This document shows, piece by piece, positions 481-6,450 of a stretch of DNA of 6,450 nucleotides. A program made the translations under genes and the position numbers. Each line of letters begins with the position of its first letter. Positions within the stretch are counted from its first letter, which is position 1. The notes under the pieces were generated by a model that was given only the letters and a program-made list of their open reading frames with translations, made no database searches and was not told the origin of the DNA. The stretch is from J088 sp003695505 [NCBI: Candidatus Dadabacteria bacterium]. GTDB lineage: Bacteria; J088. The stretch is taken from assembly GCA_003695505.1 (NCBI GenBank), contig RFIY01000360.1, forward strand, positions 1 through 6,450, in the 5' to 3' direction.

Positions 481-1683
481 TCAGGAACGATGCGTCGGCT
501 TGTGGTGACAAAGCTGCAAGGCCAGCTCGCGGATGTCTTCGGCCATAACCAGCCTGTCGAGCCAGGGCGCGGGGATGGCCTCGACGCCGTACCACGCGCC
601 GGCGATCTGGCCGACGATCGCGGCCGTCGTGTCGGCATCGTCACCGAGATTGGCGGCCAGAAGCACCGCGTCCCGGAAGTTGTCGGTGCGCCAGAAGCAC
701 CAGCAGGCGGCTTCGAGTGCATCCACCACGTAACCGCTGCCGCGAATCTCATCGGCAGATTTGGCGCGATAGCTGCCTCGGGCGATCGCGGCGATGCGCG
801 GGCTGAGTTCGGCCGGGTTCAATCCATCGGGGTGGAGGACGTGGGACTTCGATCTTCCGTCAAACGCGTGACACAGCATGGCCGCCAGGAGGCGGCAGGC
901 GTCGACACATTCGGCGGCGCCGTGGGTCGTGCGCGATGATTCCGCTGCCTGGCGAATGGCCGCGGAGATGTCGGGGTAGAAGAACATTGGCACCGGCGCC
1001 AGACGCATGATCGATCCGTTGCCGGCGCTGTGCGGATCGGTCGAGCCGGCGAATGGTTCGCCGCTCTGTTCGAAGCGGTGCAGCGCCGCCCGCACCGTGT
1101 TGCCGATGTCGAAACAACGCCCCGTGCTGCTCCAGAGGCCGTTTCGGTACCACTCCAGGTAGCGCCGCATCTGATCGGCGGGGTCGAAGCCGCTGCAACT
1201 CAGCAGGCTGTCGGCCAGGCACAGCGCCATCGAGGTGTCGTCGGTCCACGCACCGGCGGGCAGATCGAATGGTCCGCCGCCCACCATGTCGGTGAGCGGC
1301 GCGAAGCTGCCGCGGGGCCTGAACTCGACGGTCGTGCCGATGGCGTCGCCCACCGCAAGACCAAGCAGGCAACCGAGCATGCGGTCTTCGACGGTTGCTT
1401 CCGGGGGTTCGACAAAGGGCCGAACGACGATGCCGCCGAAGCGTGCTTCCTTCGCCCTGCAGCGGATCCCATCGACCCAGCAGATGTCCGCGTCGTACGG
1501 GCTGTTGTCGTCGATGTAGAAGCCACGACACCCGCCGATGTCCACGTTGCCAAATCCAACCCGCCGCCCGCTCGCATCCACCGCGCGCTCGATGCACGCC
1601 TCGCACAGGTAGTCGGGATAGCGCGCAAACGCAGTGACCGGCGCGCCGCAGATGCCGCAGGGCTGGGTTTCTGACTCACTCAC
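481..1683 (-). CDS. ADP-ribosylglycohydrolase (DraG/ARH family) with N-terminal cysteine-rich domain
   Basis: A 400-residue cytoplasmic protein. Residues about 99-380 carry the ADP-ribosylglycohydrolase motifs in order: GCLLGLAVGDAIG (104-116) followed by E120, WTDDTSMAL (146-154), GNGSIMRLAPVP (221-232), TTHGAAE (252-258) and GDDADTTAAIVG (347-358). In DraG and ARH3 relatives the TDDT and GxDxDT aspartates hold two metal ions that cleave ADP-ribose from proteins or small molecules. D148, D149, D349, D351 and T352 are present, so the enzyme looks active; its substrate is unknown. Residues 9-90 form an extra domain with C9xxC12, C27xxC30 and later C52, C68 and C75, ending in a conserved-looking CRAKEARFGGIVV stretch (75-87), probably a zinc ribbon-like module. 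The GTG start at 1683 is chosen because GAGG lies 6 bases upstream; an in-frame TTG at 1725 has no spaced ribosome site. The gene lies 91 bp downstream of vapC on the same strand. Confidence 0.9.
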   Translation of the reverse strand: MSESETQPCGICGAPVTAFARYPDYLCEACIERAVDASGRRVGFGNVDIGGCRGFYIDDNSPYDADICWVDGIRCRAKEARFGGIVVRPFVEPPEATVEDRMLGCLLGLAVGDAIGTTVEFRPRGSFAPLTDMVGGGPFDLPAGAWTDDTSMALCLADSLLSCSGFDPADQMRRYLEWYRNGLWSSTGRCFDIGNTVRAALHRFEQSGEPFAGSTDPHSAGNGSIMRLAPVPMFFYPDISAAIRQAAESSRTTHGAAECVDACRLLAAMLCHAFDGRSKSHVLHPDGLNPAELSPRIAAIARGSYRAKSADEIRGSGYVVDALEAACWCFWRTDNFRDAVLLAANLGDDADTTAAIVGQIAGAWYGVEAIPAPWLDRLVMAEDIRELALQLCHHKPTHRS

Positions 1684-1689
1684 GCGCGA

Positions 1690-1693
1690 CCTC
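1690..1693 (-). promoter_or_regulatory. Ribosome binding site of the ADP-ribosylglycohydrolase gene
   Basis: The minus strand reads GAGG at 1693-1690, six bases before the GTG at 1683. This favours GTG 1683 over the in-frame TTG at 1725, which would add 14 residues with no similarity to the rest of the domain. Confidence 0.5.
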
Positions 1694-1713
1694 GATCCGT
1701 TGCGTTCCGTACC

Positions 1714-1741
1714 ACAATACCGCAACCTGACGGCAATGCAA
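1714..1741 (-). promoter_or_regulatory. Candidate promoter for the ADP-ribosylglycohydrolase gene
   Basis: On the minus strand TTGCAT (1741-1736) and TATTGT (1719-1714) are separated by 16 bases, each matching four of six bases of the sigma-70 boxes. It lies in the 91-bp gap after vapC and would give a short leader before the GTG at 1683. It could let this gene be expressed apart from vapBC. No terminator after vapC was found, so read-through is also possible. Confidence 0.3.
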
Positions 1742-1774: not shown

Positions 1775-2206
1775 TCAATCGATGACGGTCAGATTGGCCT
1801 TGCGCGCGCCGTGCACCGTGTCGACGGAGATGTGCCGGTCGAATGTGACGAAACGCCCCTCGTGGGCGACCGCAAGCGCGAGAAGGTAGCTGTCCGTGAT
1901 TTGCTTTGGGCCGTGGATGCGGTCGTGGCGAATCAGGCTGGCCGAAAGCAGCGAAACGTCATCGGGCCAGAATTGATGCCAGCGTGTGGCGGTGGCATCG
2001 GCAAGCAGCTCGACGGCCTGGCCGAACGGAATCGGTGCAGGGTAGGCAGGCGTGGTGATGATGCGCAGGAAGCCATTCTGTGTGATGGGGCACGACGCCC
2101 AGCCGTGATCGATGGACCCCTCGAGCCAGGCGCGTGCGTCGTCGTGCCGGACATGGTTGGCGTCGAACAGCGCAATCAGGACGTTGACGTCCAGCAGTGC
2201 CCGCAT
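1775..2206 (-). CDS. vapC: VapC-type PIN-domain ribonuclease toxin
   Basis: A 143-residue PIN-domain protein, a normal length for VapC. It begins with the LLDVNVLIALFD strand that carries the first metal-binding aspartate (D6). It then has CPITQNGFLRI (39-49), ITDSYLLALAVAHEGRFVTFDRHI (103-126) with D105 and D123, and a short tail. VapC toxins are Mg2+-dependent RNases that cut tRNA or rRNA and are silenced by their VapB partner; the RNA target here cannot be read from sequence. The CPIT(E/Q)NGF(V/L)R pattern places it with the VapC group common in mycobacteria and proteobacteria. The usual second acidic residue, glutamate, is Q43 here. The ATG shares one base with the vapB stop codon (TGATG at 2208-2204), so translation is probably coupled to the antitoxin; no independent well-placed ribosome site is seen. 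Confidence 0.93.
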   Translation of the reverse strand: MRALLDVNVLIALFDANHVRHDDARAWLEGSIDHGWASCPITQNGFLRIITTPAYPAPIPFGQAVELLADATATRWHQFWPDDVSLLSASLIRHDRIHGPKQITDSYLLALAVAHEGRFVTFDRHISVDTVHGARKANLTVID

Positions 2207-2448
2207 CAGTACGGGCCATCCTCGCGCAACGCGTCGATCATTTCATCGGTCACGACGACGCCTCGTTTTCGGGCCAGCGGGCGGAACCCGTAAAAGGCGT
2301 CCTCTTCCTGAGCAGCGTCGCGTGTTTCGGCTTCCAGTGCGGTGCGGGCCAGATCGGACAGCACCTTGCCTGCGGATGTCCTTGACCGTCTCGCGCGCTG
2401 TTTGACGATCTGCAGGACATCGTCGTCGATGTCGAGGGTCGTACGCAT
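2206..2448 (-). CDS. vapB: VapB-type ribbon-helix-helix antitoxin
   Basis: An 80-residue protein directly upstream of vapC. The N-terminal half (MRTTLDIDDDVLQIVKQ, continuing to about residue 42) fits a ribbon-helix-helix DNA-binding fold: a short beta strand with alternating residues, then two helices around SAGKVLSDLARTALE. The C-terminal half (FYGFRPLARKRGVVVTDEMI, 52-71) resembles the toxin-wrapping tail seen in VapB partners of this VapC group. VapB neutralises VapC and, with it, represses its own promoter. The tandem 7-bp boxes just upstream (2463-2496) are the obvious candidate target. No Shine-Dalgarno sequence precedes the ATG at 2448; the -10-like TACAAT ends six bases before it, so the message may be leaderless. 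Confidence 0.92.
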   Translation of the reverse strand: MRTTLDIDDDVLQIVKQRARRSRTSAGKVLSDLARTALEAETRDAAQEEDAFYGFRPLARKRGVVVTDEMIDALREDGPY

Positions 2449-2531: not shown

Positions 2532-3290
2532 ATGTCAGCCATGATGTCAGCAATGAGCGAAACCACTGAACAACCCATCCCGCGCGTCGTCACGAGTCGT
2601 TGCCTCGAATCGGAGCCGGTACGCTATGACGGCACCGGTGTCGCGGTGCCCGGACTGCGCTGGTTGCTGCGCTATGTCGAGCGGGTGACGGTCTGTCCAG
2701 AGATCGCGGTTGGCCTCGGCGTGCCGCGACCGCCGATTCGTCTGCTGCGTGAGGACGGTGAGCTGGTCGTCCGTGACACTGTGAGCGGTCGCCGCGTGGA
2801 CGAGGCGTTGCGGGATTACGCGACCTCGTTCGCGGCCGGCGCTGCGACCGTGGACGGATTCATCCTCAAGGCGGGCTCGCCGAGCTGCGGTCTCGGGTCG
2901 GCAAAGATCTGGCGCGCGCTGGACGGTGATGACTGGGACGGGCGCGGTGACGGCGTGTTCGCGGAGCAGTTACAGAGGATGCGGCCGGATCGGCTGTTCG
3001 TCGACGAGTGCGCACTGACGACCGTGGATGGTTGCCTGGTGGTGCTGGCGCGGCTCAGGGCGCTGGCGCGGATCCGTCAGGTTGAACGCGGGCGGGCGGA
3101 TGCCGCATCGCTGCGGCCGCTGGCTGCGCTGACAGACATTGATCCGGCGTCGCTGGATGCGAACGATCTGCGTGAGCGGGTCATGATGGCGCAAGGCCCG
3201 GTCCGGGCCGGGGAGGGGCTGCTCGCCGACATCGACGGTGCGGCTTCAGATGAATTGGCGCAAATGATCGAAGAGGTTGCGGACGCCTGA
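2532..3290 (+). CDS. DUF523 family protein (TudS/YbbK-like, probable iron-sulfur protein)
   Basis: A 252-residue protein whose first about 155 residues match the DUF523 pattern: VVTSRCLESEPVRYDG (19-34), VTVCPEIAVGLGVPRPPIRL (52-71), GFILKAGSPSCGLGS (109-123) and GDGVFAEQL (139-147). The three cysteines expected in this family are C24, C55 and C119. In the characterised member TudS, a thiouracil desulfidase, three such cysteines hold a [4Fe-4S] cluster; whether this protein has that activity is unknown. The SRC start of the motif is closer to the DUF523 half of YbgA-like proteins, which also carry DUF1722. Here the C-terminal about 95 residues are helical and alanine/arginine-rich with no DUF1722 that I recognise. 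ATGs at 2532, 2541, 2544 and 2553 are in frame with no clear ribosome site; the exact start is unsure. The 3' end overlaps the convergent regulator gene by 45 bp. Confidence 0.85.
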   Translation: MSAMMSAMSETTEQPIPRVVTSRCLESEPVRYDGTGVAVPGLRWLLRYVERVTVCPEIAVGLGVPRPPIRLLREDGELVVRDTVSGRRVDEALRDYATSFAAGAATVDGFILKAGSPSCGLGSAKIWRALDGDDWDGRGDGVFAEQLQRMRPDRLFVDECALTTVDGCLVVLARLRALARIRQVERGRADAASLRPLAALTDIDPASLDANDLRERVMMAQGPVRAGEGLLADIDGAASDELAQMIEEVADA

Positions 3291-3863
3291 GCCCCAGTTC
3301 TTGAGATCCTGGATGCTGCGCGGCGTGCGCAGCGCAATCAGAATGCGCAGCAGTTGCTGCGCGATCTCGGTCATCCGCAGCAGGAACCGCAGCCGGTCCG
3401 CGCGCCACGGGTGTGGTTCGCGGGTGCTGTCGAGCAACTCCGCCTCTTCGAGTGCAGCTTCGAGGCGGATGCGGGCGGCCTCGATCAGCATCCACTCGCG
3501 CGAGCGGAGTACGTCGGCGATCGTCGGCCAGACGTCGATCACGGCCTCGTAGGGTGCATTGCGGCTGTCGTCGGTGGCCCGGATCAGGCCCAGATCGACC
3601 AGCTCGCCGACCGCGCCACTGACCAGCGAGCGGCTGATGTCCAGTCGTCGCGCGATATCGGCTTGCGTCAACGGGTAGCGCGACAGCGCGAGCAGGCACC
3701 AGATACGGCCATAGACGCCTTTGAAGCCCCAGTATTCGATGAACTCGCCGACGGCGTCGCAGGCGGCCAGAACCTTGCGCTCCAGGCGTTCCTGCTGCAG
3801 CCCGGCTCGCTCGGGTGCAGGTTGGTGGCCCTGGATCCTGGATGCGGTGTGCTGCTGTGTCAT
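3246..3863 (-). CDS. GbsR/MarR-type transcriptional regulator
   Basis: A 205-residue cytoplasmic DNA-binding protein. After a polar N-terminal tail (1-25) comes the GbsR-type core: EFIEYWGFKGVYGRIWCLLALS (40-61), a winged helix-turn-helix with LTQADIARRLDISRSLVSGAVGEL (65-88) and DLGLI (90-94), and then a wing. The C-terminal part (115-205) is helical, which fits the dimerisation region. GbsR-like regulators (COG1510) are MarR-superfamily repressors; the best-known members control glycine betaine synthesis or uptake in response to choline. The family is usually about 180 residues, so the N-terminal tail is a little long. The gene is divergent from menF, 153 bp apart. The inverted repeat at 3939-3966 and a partial half-site (GAACA, 3880-3884) near its own start make it a candidate regulator of menFD and of itself. 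This is inference from position. The ATG at 3863 lacks a Shine-Dalgarno sequence. Confidence 0.85.
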   Translation of the reverse strand: MTQQHTASRIQGHQPAPERAGLQQERLERKVLAACDAVGEFIEYWGFKGVYGRIWCLLALSRYPLTQADIARRLDISRSLVSGAVGELVDLGLIRATDDSRNAPYEAVIDVWPTIADVLRSREWMLIEAARIRLEAALEEAELLDSTREPHPWRADRLRFLLRMTEIAQQLLRILIALRTPRSIQDLKNWGSGVRNLFDHLRQFI

Positions 3864-3869
3864 GCGTTC

Positions 3870-3898
3870 ATTCTAGCGCGAACATCAGCCGGATTCCA
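3870..3898 (-). promoter_or_regulatory. Weak candidate promoter for the GbsR-type gene
   Basis: On the minus strand TAGAAT (3875-3870) matches five of six -10 bases and ends six bases before the ATG at 3863, the same spacing as at vapB. The hexamer 17 bases upstream (TGGAAT, 3898-3893) is a poor -35 box. If used, the transcript would have almost no leader, which fits the missing ribosome site. Confidence 0.3.
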
Positions 3899-3928: not shown

Positions 3929-3957
3929 TTGTCGTGAGCAGTTGTTCACGGTAGCAT
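3929..3957 (+). promoter_or_regulatory. Candidate promoter of menFD
   Basis: TTGTCG (3929-3934) and TAGCAT (3952-3957) are exactly 17 bases apart, each matching four of six sigma-70 consensus bases. Transcription would start about 3964, giving a leader of roughly 50 bases before menF. The -10 box lies in the spacer and edge of the perfect inverted repeat, and one repeat arm fills part of the -35/-10 spacer, an arrangement typical of a repressed promoter. Confidence 0.5.
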
Positions 3958-3966
3958 GAACAACTG
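3933..3966. repeat. Inverted repeat operator in the menF promoter
   Basis: The arms CAGTTGTTCA (3939-3948) and TGAACAACTG (3957-3966) are exact reverse complements over 10 bp, separated by 8 bases. The left arm is also half of a second near-palindrome at 3933-3950: CGTGAGCA and TGTTCACG around a central GT, with one mismatch. This gives three TG(A/T)(A/G/T)CA-like half-sites in 34 bp, suggesting two adjacent dimer sites or alternative binding registers. It overlaps the candidate menF -10 box. The adjacent GbsR-type protein is the most likely binder, by position only. A transcript hairpin is less likely, because the putative start site is inside the right arm. Confidence 0.65.
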
Positions 3967-4016: not shown

Positions 4017-5309
4017 GTGGTCTTATCCATACCCCGTCGTGATGCGGTCGATCCGTTGCTTGCGGCAGCGCCCGTTGTCGAGCGTCTCGTGCTGCCGAAA
4101 GGTACGGATCCGTGGTCGTTTGTCGCCGCACTTCCTTTGTCGGCGCCGGCCTGGTACTGGCACGATCCCGACGCGGGTGAAACCCTTGCCGCGGCTTTTG
4201 CGATCGCAGCGGGCACGGGCGAGCCGCAGTGGGATGCGTGGAGCGAACTGGTTTCACGCATTCGTGAACAATGCGACGGCGCCGTGCGTCTCTGGTTCGG
4301 CGGGGCCCGGTCGGGTGCGGATCGGGTCGCCGCGACGATGCCCGCGGACAGAGCCTGGATGGTACCCGGTCTGACCGTGCGCCGTGACCAGACGGGAGTG
4401 GCGGCGTGGTTGTGTGGCGATGCCGAGACGCGACGCGCCTTGCGCGCCATCTGCGAGCGGGCGTCCACAGGTTCGGATGCACTCGAGGTCGTTGCCGAAA
4501 CTCGGTGGGATGAGATCGCCACCGATTCGTGCGCCGACTGGAACGCGCGCGTCGAAGCGGTTCGCGGCGCCATTCGTGATGGGCGACTTCATAAGGCGGT
4601 TCCCAGCCGCCGGGTCTGGTTCCGCGCCGACAGGGTGGATGCAATGCACGCCGGGCTACGCGCGCGGTTGCGTCGAACACCCGACCGGGTGGCCCTGCTG
4701 GTCGAGCAGGAGTCCGGTCTGTTCGCCGCCGCGACGCCGGAGACGTTGTTCACAGTCGCTGCCGATGGGACCTTGCGGACGCATGCGCTGGCCGGCACGC
4801 TGGCGCCCGGCGCCACGATCGATGCGTTTCTCGACAACGCGCGGTTGCGCGAGGAGCACGAGCTCGTCGTTGCGGACATCTGCAAGGTACTGGAGTCGCT
4901 CGGACTGGCGCCGCAGGCGGCCACGCCACGCGTGCGACCGGCGGGAGCCGTCTGCCATCTGGAGACACCGATTCTTGCACACGGCGCCGATCGCTGTACG
5001 CCGCAACAGTTGCGGAACGCATTGCATCCGACCGCTGCGATCGTCGGCGCGCCACGCCGCGAGGCCGCCGCATTCATCGACGCACTCGAACCGTTTTCCC
5101 GCGGCTGGTTCGCCGCGCCGTTCGGCTGGACCGACGGCGGGCGCAACAAGGCGGTCATCGCGATCCGTTCGGTGTGGCTCGACGACAGCGGTGCGCATGC
5201 GCTCGTCGGGGCCGGCATCGTGGCCGACTCCGAACCGGATCTCGAATGGGAAGAGACCGAGCGCAAACTCGACAACATGCGGCAGATGATCGGGATGGTC
5301 AACGCGTGA
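4017..5309 (+). CDS. menF: Isochorismate synthase MenF
   Basis: A 430-residue enzyme, almost the length of E. coli MenF (431). It converts chorismate to isochorismate with Mg2+, the entry step of menaquinone synthesis. The chorismate-binding domain fills the C-terminal about 260 residues. Visible motifs are RLHKAVPSRRVWF with the general base K193, ATPETLF with the general acid E242, HALAGT ending in T261, EEHELVVADI (279-288), LHPTAAIVGAPRREAAAF around H337, EPFSRGWFAAPFGW, and GAGIVADSEPDLEWEETERKL near 398-419. K193, E242 and T261 keep the spacing seen in MenF, Irp9 and MbtI. The N-terminal about 150 residues are the variable lobe. Linkage to menD argues for menaquinone rather than siderophore synthesis (EntC). 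The GTG start is set by TAGGAGG five bases upstream. A candidate promoter and operator lie 50-90 bases upstream. The gene overlaps menD by four bases. Confidence 0.95.
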   Translation: MVLSIPRRDAVDPLLAAAPVVERLVLPKGTDPWSFVAALPLSAPAWYWHDPDAGETLAAAFAIAAGTGEPQWDAWSELVSRIREQCDGAVRLWFGGARSGADRVAATMPADRAWMVPGLTVRRDQTGVAAWLCGDAETRRALRAICERASTGSDALEVVAETRWDEIATDSCADWNARVEAVRGAIRDGRLHKAVPSRRVWFRADRVDAMHAGLRARLRRTPDRVALLVEQESGLFAAATPETLFTVAADGTLRTHALAGTLAPGATIDAFLDNARLREEHELVVADICKVLESLGLAPQAATPRVRPAGAVCHLETPILAHGADRCTPQQLRNALHPTAAIVGAPRREAAAFIDALEPFSRGWFAAPFGWTDGGRNKAVIAIRSVWLDDSGAHALVGAGIVADSEPDLEWEETERKLDNMRQMIGMVNA

Positions 5310-6450
5310 GCAACGGAGTTGCCAGCGCGAATGCGGCGGCTGCGGCAGCCGTCGTCGGCGCGTTCCGGGCCGCCGGAGGGACGCGGGCGGTCGTCTCGCC
5401 CGGATCGCGTTCCACGCCGCTCGTTCAGGCGCTGGCCGGGACCGATCTCGATGTCCGGGTGGTTCTTGACGAACGCACGGCGGCGTTCATCGCGGTCGGG
5501 GCTGCAAGGTCCGATGGCCGACCGGTCCTGCTTGTCTGCACCTCGGGAAGCGCCGGGGCGCACTATGGCCCGGCGGCCGCCGAGGCAATCGAAGCGGGAC
5601 TGCCGCTGTGGCTGGTTACCGCAGACCGGCCGCCGGAGCTGCACGGCATCGGCGCGCCGCAGACGACACGTCAGCACGACTGGTACGGGGGAAACATCGC
5701 CCGGATCGTCGTCGCTGCCGCGGACGAAGTCGACCCCACTGAGCTGGCCGGCCGCGTCACGGCTGCGGCCCCGGATGCGGGCCCCCTGCACCTCAACATC
5801 GGATTTCGCGAGCCGCTCGTCGCCGATCGTGTGCCGCGCATCGACGTTGCACCGGTCTTGCGGCCCGCGGCCATACAACCGTGTCCGACGCCGCCGGCCG
5901 AGGATCTGGATCGCGCTGCCCGTCCACTGATCGTACTTGGTCCAGAAGCGGAGGGTCTCTGGCTCCCTGGTGGCTGGGAACGGTGGGCGCAGGAAGCGGA
6001 CGTCCCGGTCGTTGCCGATGTGCTGGCCGGAACCGCAGCCGGGCTGCGCGGCCTCGACGGGATGCTGCGCGATGAGGCCCTTCGTGAGGCGTTGCAGCCT
6101 GACGTCGTGATGCAGTTTGGCCGATTGCCGACATCGAAGGCGCTTGGTCAGTGGCTCGCACGGTGCGAAGCCGAGGGCGTGCCGGTCTGGCACGTCTCGC
6201 CCGATCAACGGCCGCACGCGTGGCGCCCGTCGGATCGTGTCGTGACGGGCCCGATTGCAGCGCCAGATGTGGCGCCGCAGTCGACGCCGGGCTGGACGGC
6301 AACGTGGCAGGCGCTTGCCACGGCCGTTTCCGGCATCACGCTGGACCCCGGTTTCTGGGAGGCGCATATCTGGCGGGCGCTGGCGCAGGCGCTGCCCGAC
6401 GGCGCAACGGTGCTGGCCGGATCGAGCATGGCGGTGCGCGACGCCGACCA
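5306..6450 (+). CDS. menD: MenD, SEPHCHC synthase (ThDP enzyme), 3' part beyond window edge
   Basis: The reading frame is open from GTG 5306 to the right edge (381 codons), about two-thirds of a usual MenD (around 550 residues). MenD uses thiamine diphosphate to decarboxylate 2-oxoglutarate and add the product to isochorismate, the step after MenF. The pyrimidine-binding domain shows VSPGSRSTPL (29-38; S33, R34), LDERTAAF with catalytic E55, CTSGSAGAHYGPAAAEA (77-93), TADRPPEL with R107, and GAPQTTRQ with Q118. E55, R107 and Q118 fall at the E. coli positions. The middle domain follows (about 190-340). The last residues, SSMAVRDAD, match the substrate-binding S-x3-R motif (S374, R378) at the start of the cofactor domain. 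The start shares GTGA with the menF stop codon, a sign of coupled translation; no good separate ribosome site is seen. Confidence 0.95.
   Translation, partial: MSNGVASANAAAAAAVVGAFRAAGGTRAVVSPGSRSTPLVQALAGTDLDVRVVLDERTAAFIAVGAARSDGRPVLLVCTSGSAGAHYGPAAAEAIEAGLPLWLVTADRPPELHGIGAPQTTRQHDWYGGNIARIVVAAADEVDPTELAGRVTAAAPDAGPLHLNIGFREPLVADRVPRIDVAPVLRPAAIQPCPTPPAEDLDRAARPLIVLGPEAEGLWLPGGWERWAQEADVPVVADVLAGTAAGLRGLDGMLRDEALREALQPDVVMQFGRLPTSKALGQWLARCEAEGVPVWHVSPDQRPHAWRPSDRVVTGPIAAPDVAPQSTPGWTATWQALATAVSGITLDPGFWEAHIWRALAQALPDGATVLAGSSMAVRDAD

What the first reader, a model, noticed from the sequence alone, without database searches (positions are those of the whole stretch)
3929..3966. Perfect inverted repeat in the menF promoter, next to a divergent GbsR-type regulator
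A 10-bp perfect inverted repeat (arms 3939-3948 and 3957-3966) overlaps the -10 box of the candidate menFD promoter, with a third overlapping half-site at 3933-3940. The divergent neighbour encodes a GbsR/MarR-type repressor. GbsR proteins are known from choline and glycine betaine control, so local control of menaquinone synthesis by this family would be new to my knowledge. The repeat and promoter boxes are read directly; the binding partner is inferred.
Basis: partly seen in the sequence, partly recalled or inferred. Interest (0 to 1): 0.6.

Follow-up and report, generated by a model that had tools for sequence, protein, structure and literature searches.

The report
Vitamin-K gene switch beside its repressor
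A short mirror-image DNA sequence in front of a vitamin K2 (menaquinone) gene is kept almost letter for letter in distant relatives while the DNA around it drifts, which marks it as the likely landing site of the regulator encoded next door and points to an undescribed on/off switch for making this respiratory vitamin.

Summary
Confirmed and strengthened. The 10-8-10 perfect repeat at 3939-3966 is real. I found 19 orthologous regulators (three in named records, two of those Myxococcota); 16 of 19 sit beside menF or a menF fragment. GTTCA-N8-TGAAC occurs upstream of the regulator in 10 of 18 loci exactly and in 14 of 18 with at most one mismatch; shuffles average 0.007 and 0.10. Over 18 menF-side sites the arms hold 1.58 bits per base, the spacer 0.18, the flanks 0.08. 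In 9 of 18 genomes searched, the window's own among them, the 22-bp site with at most one mismatch occurs once, at this locus. Where regulator and menF are tandem, a site lies between them. A sister clade, mostly beside futalosine-pathway menaquinone genes, has TTCA-N8-TGAA in 25 of 27 loci. The footprinted site of CydE, a GbsR-type repressor, contains TTTCA-N8-TGAAA. Best reading: a GbsR-type repressor of menFD and itself. Binding, direction and ligand are untested. No such GbsR class was found in print.

The parts
3939..3966 (+). menF-side operator: CAGTTGTTCA-N8-TGAACAACTG; conserved core TTGTTCA-N8-TGAACAA (3942-3963)
3866..3883 (-). regulator-side operator GTTCGCGCTAGAATGAAC, next to the regulator's start codon (autoregulation site, inferred)
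   Evidence: a site at or near the regulator's start plus another on the menF side in 14 of 20 loci
3929..3934 (+). candidate -35 box TTGTCG of menF (weak)
   Evidence: read directly; not reached by the scan
3952..3957 (+). candidate -10 box TAGCAT of menF, inside the operator spacer and the first base of the right arm
   Evidence: read directly
3870..3875 (-). candidate -10 box TAGAAT of the regulator gene inside the second operator; would give a leaderless or nearly leaderless mRNA (inference)
   Evidence: read directly; no good -35 seen by eye
3246..3863 (-). GbsR-type (MarR superfamily) regulator, 205 aa
   Evidence: Pfam MarR_2 2e-11; 1ku9 Mj223 best by E-value in sequence and fold; AF2 mean pLDDT 88.8
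4017..5309 (+). menF, isochorismate synthase, GTG start with AGGAGG
   Evidence: (TIGR00543 1.2e-57, below its curated cut-off)
5306..6450 (+). menD (SEPHCHC synthase), GTG overlapping the menF stop, runs off the contig
   Evidence: TIGR00173 over cut-off; start read

Best explanation
The repeat is the operator of the adjacent GbsR-type regulator. A dimer sits on TTGTTCA-N8-TGAACAA over the core promoter of the menFD operon and blocks RNA polymerase; a second dimer on the related site at the regulator's own start makes the gene autoregulated. A ligand or redox cue that signals need for menaquinone (or the state of its precursors) releases it. Shown by sequence: the sites, their conservation, their dedication to this locus in half of the genomes searched, and their place before menF also where the gene order differs. 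Inferred: binding, repression rather than activation, dimer occupancy, the ligand. A signal common to the men-type and the futalosine-type clade would have to be something both pathways share (chorismate, polyprenyl diphosphate, menaquinone, respiratory state), not isochorismate.
For: 19 orthologues besides the window; 16 of the 19 beside menF: 12 divergent menF-menD and G174 divergent with ispA-menG-menF-menD, G203 tandem, G199 tandem and G099 divergent, both with a menF fragment at a contig edge (weak profile scores, 8.6e-7 and 4.4e-5). GTTCA-N8-TGAAC in 300 nt upstream: exact 10 of 18, at most 1 mismatch 14 of 18, at most 2 mismatches 17 of 18; shuffle means 0.007, 0.10, 1.59. Bits per base over 18 menF-side sites: arms 1.58, spacer 0.18, flanks 0.08. 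For 15 of them the outer TT/AA were not used to choose the site; these four columns hold 0.95, 1.29, 1.86 and 0.62 bits there. Only match of the 22-mer at up to 1 mismatch in G000, G127, G218, G219, G222, G223, G224, G225, G226, 9 of 18 genomes searched. In G199 and G203 (tandem order) an exact site lies between regulator and menF. In 57 genomes of one class the exact site occurs at 13 places (reversed control pattern: 1), 8 of them at the regulator-menF locus (in G200 at a contig edge where menF is not seen); 8 of 16 genomes with the regulator and 2 of 41 without it have the site. Sister clade: TTCA-N8-TGAA in 25 of 27 upstream regions, shuffle mean 0.05, other spacings 0-1 of 27. CydE, a GbsR-type repressor: footprinted site with TTTCA-N8-TGAAA.
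Against: G100 keeps the regulator beside menB-menG-ispA-menCE and has no site. G232 has 53 nt upstream and no site or men gene in view. G099 and G174 have the core, but their own sites are not within one mismatch of the 22-mer. In G199, G200, G229, G230 and G231 there are further matches of the 22-mer within one mismatch (G229, G230, G231: 4, 11 and 4 against controls of 1, 6 and 2), and G203 has a second exact one inside a coding frame. 27 of 41 genomes of the class without the regulator have menD matches, so the control is not general. The menF promoter boxes are weak, and the site's place relative to plausible -10 boxes, judged by eye, varies between loci, so the blocking mode is not fixed. 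CydE's second footprinted site, GGGATGCGCATATGCAAAT, does not have this form. I have no binding or expression data.
Confidence: 0.86

Rival explanations
1. The dyad is the regulator's operator but the regulator activates menF, or does both, rather than represses it.
For: Direction cannot be read from sequence; in several loci the site lies near a poor -10 region (by eye).
Against: Characterised GbsR-type proteins CydE and CioR are repressors; the window site covers the -10 box, and in G199, G200 and G203 the site lies, judged by eye, at or downstream of the likely promoter, where activators rarely work (general knowledge).
Confidence: 0.1
2. The dyad is bound by another factor (for example a global redox regulator), and the neighbouring regulator is a bystander.
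For: No binding data; 2 of 41 regulator-less genomes contain the exact site elsewhere.
Against: The site is unique in 9 of 18 genomes searched and goes with the regulator gene; a global factor would have many sites. The same TTCA-N8-TGAA layout recurs at a second clade of the same protein family and in a footprinted GbsR-type operator.
Confidence: 0.03
3. The repeat works as an RNA hairpin in the menF leader or as a terminator, not as a protein site.
For: An inverted repeat can fold when transcribed.
Against: It overlaps the -10 box, so most of it would not be transcribed in the window; the terminator scan lists nothing here; identical letters are kept rather than just pairing; a second copy lies at the start of the divergent gene.
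Confidence: 0.02
4. Chance repeat without function.
For: A perfect 10-bp repeat with a 3-20 nt spacer is expected 0.75 times in a shuffled window.
Against: Conservation in relatives whose regulators are about 44-58% identical.
Confidence: 0.005

Closest known systems
CydE of Alishewanella sp. WH16-1 (GbsR-type repressor of cydAB; PMC6096048, passages and section 24 read)
   Same: GbsR-type protein; footprinted site 1 contains TTTCA-N8-TGAAA, the same half-site order and spacing; two sites in the promoter; controls its own operon; respiratory target
   Different: Target is a quinol oxidase operon in which cydE itself lies; outer base T/A instead of G/C; de-repressed by sulfate; its second footprinted site lacks this form
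CioR of Chromobacterium violaceum (PMC11837568, passages)
   Same: GbsR-type autorepressor of a respiratory operon
   Different: cytochrome bd target; iron and zinc disrupt binding; the words 'inverted repeat' do not occur in the paper
GbsR, OpcR, OpuAR, YvaV (PMC6207618, abstract, section 16 and passages)
   Same: Same family by fold (Mj223 template); OpcR and YvaV genes also divergent from their targets
   Different: Targets are choline/glycine betaine synthesis and Opu transporters; the review's four classes contain no quinone class, 73 of 179 were unassigned, and 'quinone', 'prenyl' and 'myxo' occur nowhere in it
CrtR of Corynebacterium glutamicum (PMC5401885, passages)
   Same: MarR-type repressor divergent from an isoprenoid operon that begins with a prenyl synthase; released by isoprenoid pyrophosphates, GGPP best: one model for the ligand
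   Different: Carotenoids, not menaquinone; TTAA-containing site; not called GbsR-type in the passages seen
SlyA of enteric bacteria (PMC12506092, passages)
   Same: MarR-family protein that senses respiratory status through aromatic carboxylates of the quinone and siderophore pathways; menD mutation affects it: another model for the ligand
   Different: A global factor, not a dedicated menaquinone repressor; 'GbsR' does not occur in the paper

Membership tests
GbsR-type regulators (MarR superfamily) | MarR-type winged helix-turn-helix | tested here: met
   Pfam MarR_2 2e-11, residues 55-99, above the gathering score
GbsR-type regulators (MarR superfamily) | Mj223-like overall fold (DNA head, linker, C-terminal dimer domain) | tested here: met
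   1ku9 (Mj223) is the best PDB hit by sequence (2.1e-6) and by Foldseek E-value (6.6e-7, TM 0.43/0.53, rmsd 6.2). An uncharacterised protein, 5jbr_A, comes second by E-value with a higher TM-score (0.55/0.73). The middling TM to Mj223 may reflect a different head-tail angle; monomer model only
GbsR-type regulators (MarR superfamily) | Binds an inverted-repeat operator in its target promoter | tested here: inconclusive
   Conserved dyad with the CydE site 1 spacing; binding itself not tested
GbsR-type regulators (MarR superfamily) | Gene neighbourhood in one of the published classes (betaine, Opu, cyd, other transporters) | tested here: not met
   Menaquinone genes in 17 of the 19 orthologous loci (16 menF, G100 other men genes); G200 and G232 are cut by contig ends. 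Neighbourhood is a class label in the review, not a condition of membership
GbsR (choline-responsive subgroup) | Aromatic cage that binds choline or betaine | not tested
   The B. subtilis sequence was not aligned here

The most novel reading that the evidence does not exclude
A quinone-biosynthesis branch of the GbsR family exists in Myxococcota-like bacteria: two clades, one at classical men genes and one at futalosine-pathway (mqn) genes, read operators of one layout, nTTCA-N8-TGAAn, and sense a signal common to both pathways such as chorismate, menaquinone or a polyprenyl diphosphate, in places with a wider regulon (mevalonate entry enzyme, menaquinol oxidoreductase).
Probability: 0.45. 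Interest if true: 0.75.

Novelty: new variant of a known kind. Interest (0 to 1): 0.63.

Why it matters
To my knowledge (recalled), how bacteria set the level of menaquinone is poorly known. Here are a regulator gene, its letter-precise candidate operator and its target operon, conserved over distant relatives and with a parallel at the second menaquinone pathway. The operator layout may be a reading code for respiratory GbsR-type proteins, which would let some of the unassigned GbsR genes (73 of 179 in the 2018 review) be assigned by their sites.

Tried and rejected
Third half-site at 3933-3940: no conservation. Leads not followed as regulon: five two-mismatch sites in the window's genome, one of which (C177) lies in an atpB-like frame (name recalled); G203 C232 exact site inside the 3' part of an oxidoreductase-like frame; G199 C402 exact and G200 C868 one-mismatch sites beside proteins without a clear family; G098 C469 imperfect site inside a long frame; G187 and G217 exact sites, with no men gene recognised in the frames listed (by eye). 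Covariation of operator and recognition helix: loci with GTTTA/TAAAC (G098, G230, G231) have SRGT or SRAS where nearly all GTTCA loci have SRSL (G099 has SKAL), but most Bdellovibrionota-type relatives with GTTTA/TAAAC have SKAL too, so only suggestive. Helical phasing of the two sites: separations of 78 to 161 bp in 11 loci show no common phase, so looping is not argued. Relatives of the window's genome could not be taken from its own taxonomy: one search gave only distant genomes and only itself. Literature listings in which, by title, no paper is about a menaquinone regulator of this family; the library holds open-licence papers only, and the listings (15 of 29; 10 of 14) were partial.

Full report
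What is there. The window is one whole contig (G000:C64) of a fragmented 2.8-Mb genome of unlinked taxonomy. A 205-aa MarR-type gene (3246-3863, - strand) faces menF (4017-5309) and menD (from 5306, cut by the contig end). Between them lies CAGTTGTTCA-CGGTAGCA-TGAACAACTG at 3939-3966, a perfect repeat. A second, related dyad, GTTCGCGCTAGAATGAAC on the - strand (3883..3866), lies at the regulator's start. Each holds a -10-like hexamer in or at the edge of its spacer: TAGCAT for menF, TAGAAT for the regulator (read directly). The menF boxes are weak, 8 of 12 matches, and the automatic scan did not list them.

Chance. A perfect 10-bp repeat with a 3-20 nt spacer is expected 0.75 times in a shuffled copy of the window (40 shuffles), so the repeat alone means little window-wide; in the 153-bp intergenic stretch it arises in 5 of 2000 shuffles. 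The case rests on relatives.

Relatives. One scan of genome contigs gave 12 relatives; three with 44, 56 and 44% identity are men-linked: L025 (uncultured Myxococcales) divergent from menF-menD; L026 (Myxococcota) divergent from a menF fragment and followed by a polyprenyl synthetase and menA; L027 (named only 'bacterium', but in the same class as L025) beside menB-menG-ispA-menCE (names by eye; menF fragment by profile). Searching the class of L026 gave 34 of 71 genomes with a match at 1e-15, three of them clear orthologues by score (2.6e-52 or better; next 5.6e-22), the rest a distinct group near 35% identity. The class of L025 and L027 gave 16 of 57 genomes at 1e-24 (the same 57 genomes). 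That makes 20 loci with the window. A tree of 43 regulators puts these 20 on one side of a branch with support 97/91 (two long rows warned of; the tree held 13 of the 27 sister rows).

Gene order. Beside the window, menF-menD is divergent from the regulator in 12 loci, ispA-menG-menF-menD in G174, menF-menD is downstream on the same strand in G203, a menF fragment lies at a contig edge in G099 (divergent) and in G199 (downstream): 16 of 19. G200 ends 141 nt after the regulator, G232 is cut, G100 has other men genes.

Operators. GTTCA-N8-TGAAC, taken from the window, was sought in the 300 nt upstream of the other regulators with enough sequence: exact in 10 of 18, at most one mismatch in 14 of 18, at most two in 17 of 18; 300 rounds of dinucleotide shuffles give means of 0.007, 0.10 and 1.59 (the window and G232, with 53 nt, left out). 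G100 has none. With C/T and G/A allowed in the core and one mismatch, 18 of 20 loci have a site, and 11 have one at or near the regulator's start and one further off (in G226 the near one lies inside the coding start); with the tandem loci G199, G200 and G203, which have one upstream of the regulator and one after it, that is 14 of 20. Aligned on 18 menF-side sites the two 7-base arms hold 1.58 bits per base, the spacer 0.18 and the flanks 0.08. Part of this is by choice of sites, since the ten core positions were used to find them, and for G199, G200 and G203 the outer bases too. For the other 15 sites the outer TT and AA were not used, and hold 0.95, 1.29, 1.86 and 0.62 bits against 0.10 in the flanks.

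Dedication. The 22-base form TTGTTYA-N8-TRAACAA was searched in 18 of the 20 genomes. With at most one mismatch it occurs once in each of G000, G127, G218, G219, G222, G223, G224, G225 and G226 (2.8 to 11.4 Mb), each time at the regulator-menF locus (the listing was cut inside G218 after its better matches). In the other nine: G099 has one match, elsewhere; G174 and G232 have none; G203 has two, both exact; G200 three; G199 six; G229, G230 and G231 have 4, 11 and 4, against 1, 6 and 2 for the reversed control. The two genomes left out were scanned with a 21-base form (GTTGTTYA-N8-TRAAC): in G098 the only exact match is the regulator-menF site, in G100 there is no exact match; in G099 its own site is the only match even with one mismatch. 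In 57 genomes the exact 22-mer lies at 13 places: 8 at the regulator-menF locus (in G200 at a contig edge where menF is not seen), two more in G199, one more in G203, and one each in G187 and G217, which lack the regulator at the threshold used; the reversed control has one place. In G199 and G203, where the order is regulator then menF, an exact site lies between them, just before menF. The site goes with the menF promoter, not only with the divergent layout.

A parallel at the other menaquinone pathway. Of the group near 35% identity 27 of 32 matches came with loci; 26 of these 27 have a polyprenyl synthetase next to the regulator (L066 excepted). Wider regions were read for 23 of the 27; 19 contain mqnE of the futalosine pathway; the four without are L178, L181, L195 (short) and L170 (families named on two regions). 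Upstream of these regulators TTCA-N8-TGAA is found in 25 of 27, shuffle mean 0.05, while spacings of 4, 7, 9 and 12 give 0, 1, 0 and 0. Relatives in records named Bacteriovoracaceae, Bdellovibrionales, Bdellovibrionaceae or Proteobacteria have GTTTA-N8-TAAAC in 5 of 8 examined (L031, with a short upstream stretch, was left out of the count and shows this form; L022-L024 of other genomes were not counted and show no such pair beyond one partial match in L023), one of them (L029) divergent from a polyprenyl synthetase and a menA-like gene.

Wider regulon, weak evidence. In G199 an exact site lies upstream of a multihaem cytochrome and a molybdopterin-type protein whose best named relatives are the menaquinone reductase subunits QrcA and QrcB (both below curated cut-offs), as in alternative complex III-type enzymes (name recalled); in G200 a two-mismatch and a one-mismatch site, 78 bp apart, lie at the start of a gene whose best profile is HMG-CoA synthase (1.3e-71, below its cut-off), the entry to mevalonate. 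Single genomes only.

Comparison with the known. The regulator's best solved relative by E-value is Mj223, template of the GbsR family, by sequence and by fold (5jbr_A has a higher TM-score; the GbsR review's abstract). The review's section on distribution, read in full, lists classes for betaine, Opu transporters, other transporters and cytochrome bd, and leaves 73 of 179 unassigned; 'quinone', 'prenyl' and 'myxo' occur nowhere in the review. The footprinted site 1 of CydE, TATTTCAGAAATTTCTGAAAGTTCA, contains TTTCA-N8-TGAAA (section read): an experimentally bound operator of a GbsR-type repressor with the layout found here. Its second site does not have it. CioR is a GbsR-type autorepressor of cytochrome bd released by metals (passages). 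CrtR, a MarR-type repressor divergent from a prenyl-synthase-led operon, is released by isoprenoid pyrophosphates (passages). SlyA, a MarR-family protein, senses aromatic carboxylates of the quinone and siderophore pathways (passages). Searches for GbsR with menaquinone (8 papers; by title none on control of menaquinone by GbsR, several on cytochrome bd; listing only), GbsR-type with polyprenyl (0), GbsR with Myxococcota (0) and futalosine with MarR (14, 10 listed, none on this by title) found no such regulator.

Mechanism and limits. Most likely: dimeric repressor, steric block of menFD and of its own promoter, released by a signal of menaquinone need. Repression is inferred from CydE and CioR and from the site over the -10 box; the ligand is open. 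A ligand shared by both clades cannot be isochorismate; a polyprenyl diphosphate or menaquinone itself is my guess, about one in three, with chorismate or an aromatic carboxylate as the next choice. Nothing here is a binding or expression result.

Noticed in passing
L169, L171, L176-L195 (class of G099): GbsR-type genes divergent from ispA-(menG)-ubiX-mqnE-mqnA/mqnC, the futalosine menaquinone pathway (mqnE in 19 of 23 regions read), with TTCA-N8-TGAA dyads upstream: a parallel system that deserves its own report.
   Followed up: partly
L138 (G200:C618), sites at record positions 4627 and 4705: Two operator-like sites (two and one mismatches) at the start of an HMG-CoA synthase-like gene: possible link of menaquinone control to mevalonate entry.
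   Followed up: partly
L136 (G199:C141:6583-6604): Exact operator upstream of a QrcA/QrcB-like (alternative complex III-like) operon.
   Followed up: partly
window 481-1725 (-): ADP-ribosylglycohydrolase whose best profile is ADP-ribosylarginine hydrolase Tri1 (6.5e-114, below the curated cut-off), with an N-terminal extension holding a CxxC pair.
   Followed up: no
window 1775-2448 (-): PIN-domain protein with a small upstream frame that overlaps it by one base: looks like a VapBC-type toxin-antitoxin pair (the small frame has no Pfam hit).
   Followed up: no
window 2532-3290 (+): 2-thiouracil desulfurase-domain protein (PF04463) whose 3' end overlaps the 3' end of the convergent regulator gene (3246-3290).
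   Followed up: no
L025, L116, L117 compared with the other loci: GTTTA/TAAAC operators occur in G098 and in the G230-G231 pair, which lie apart in the tree, each with altered recognition-helix residues: a possible natural specificity switch.
   Followed up: partly
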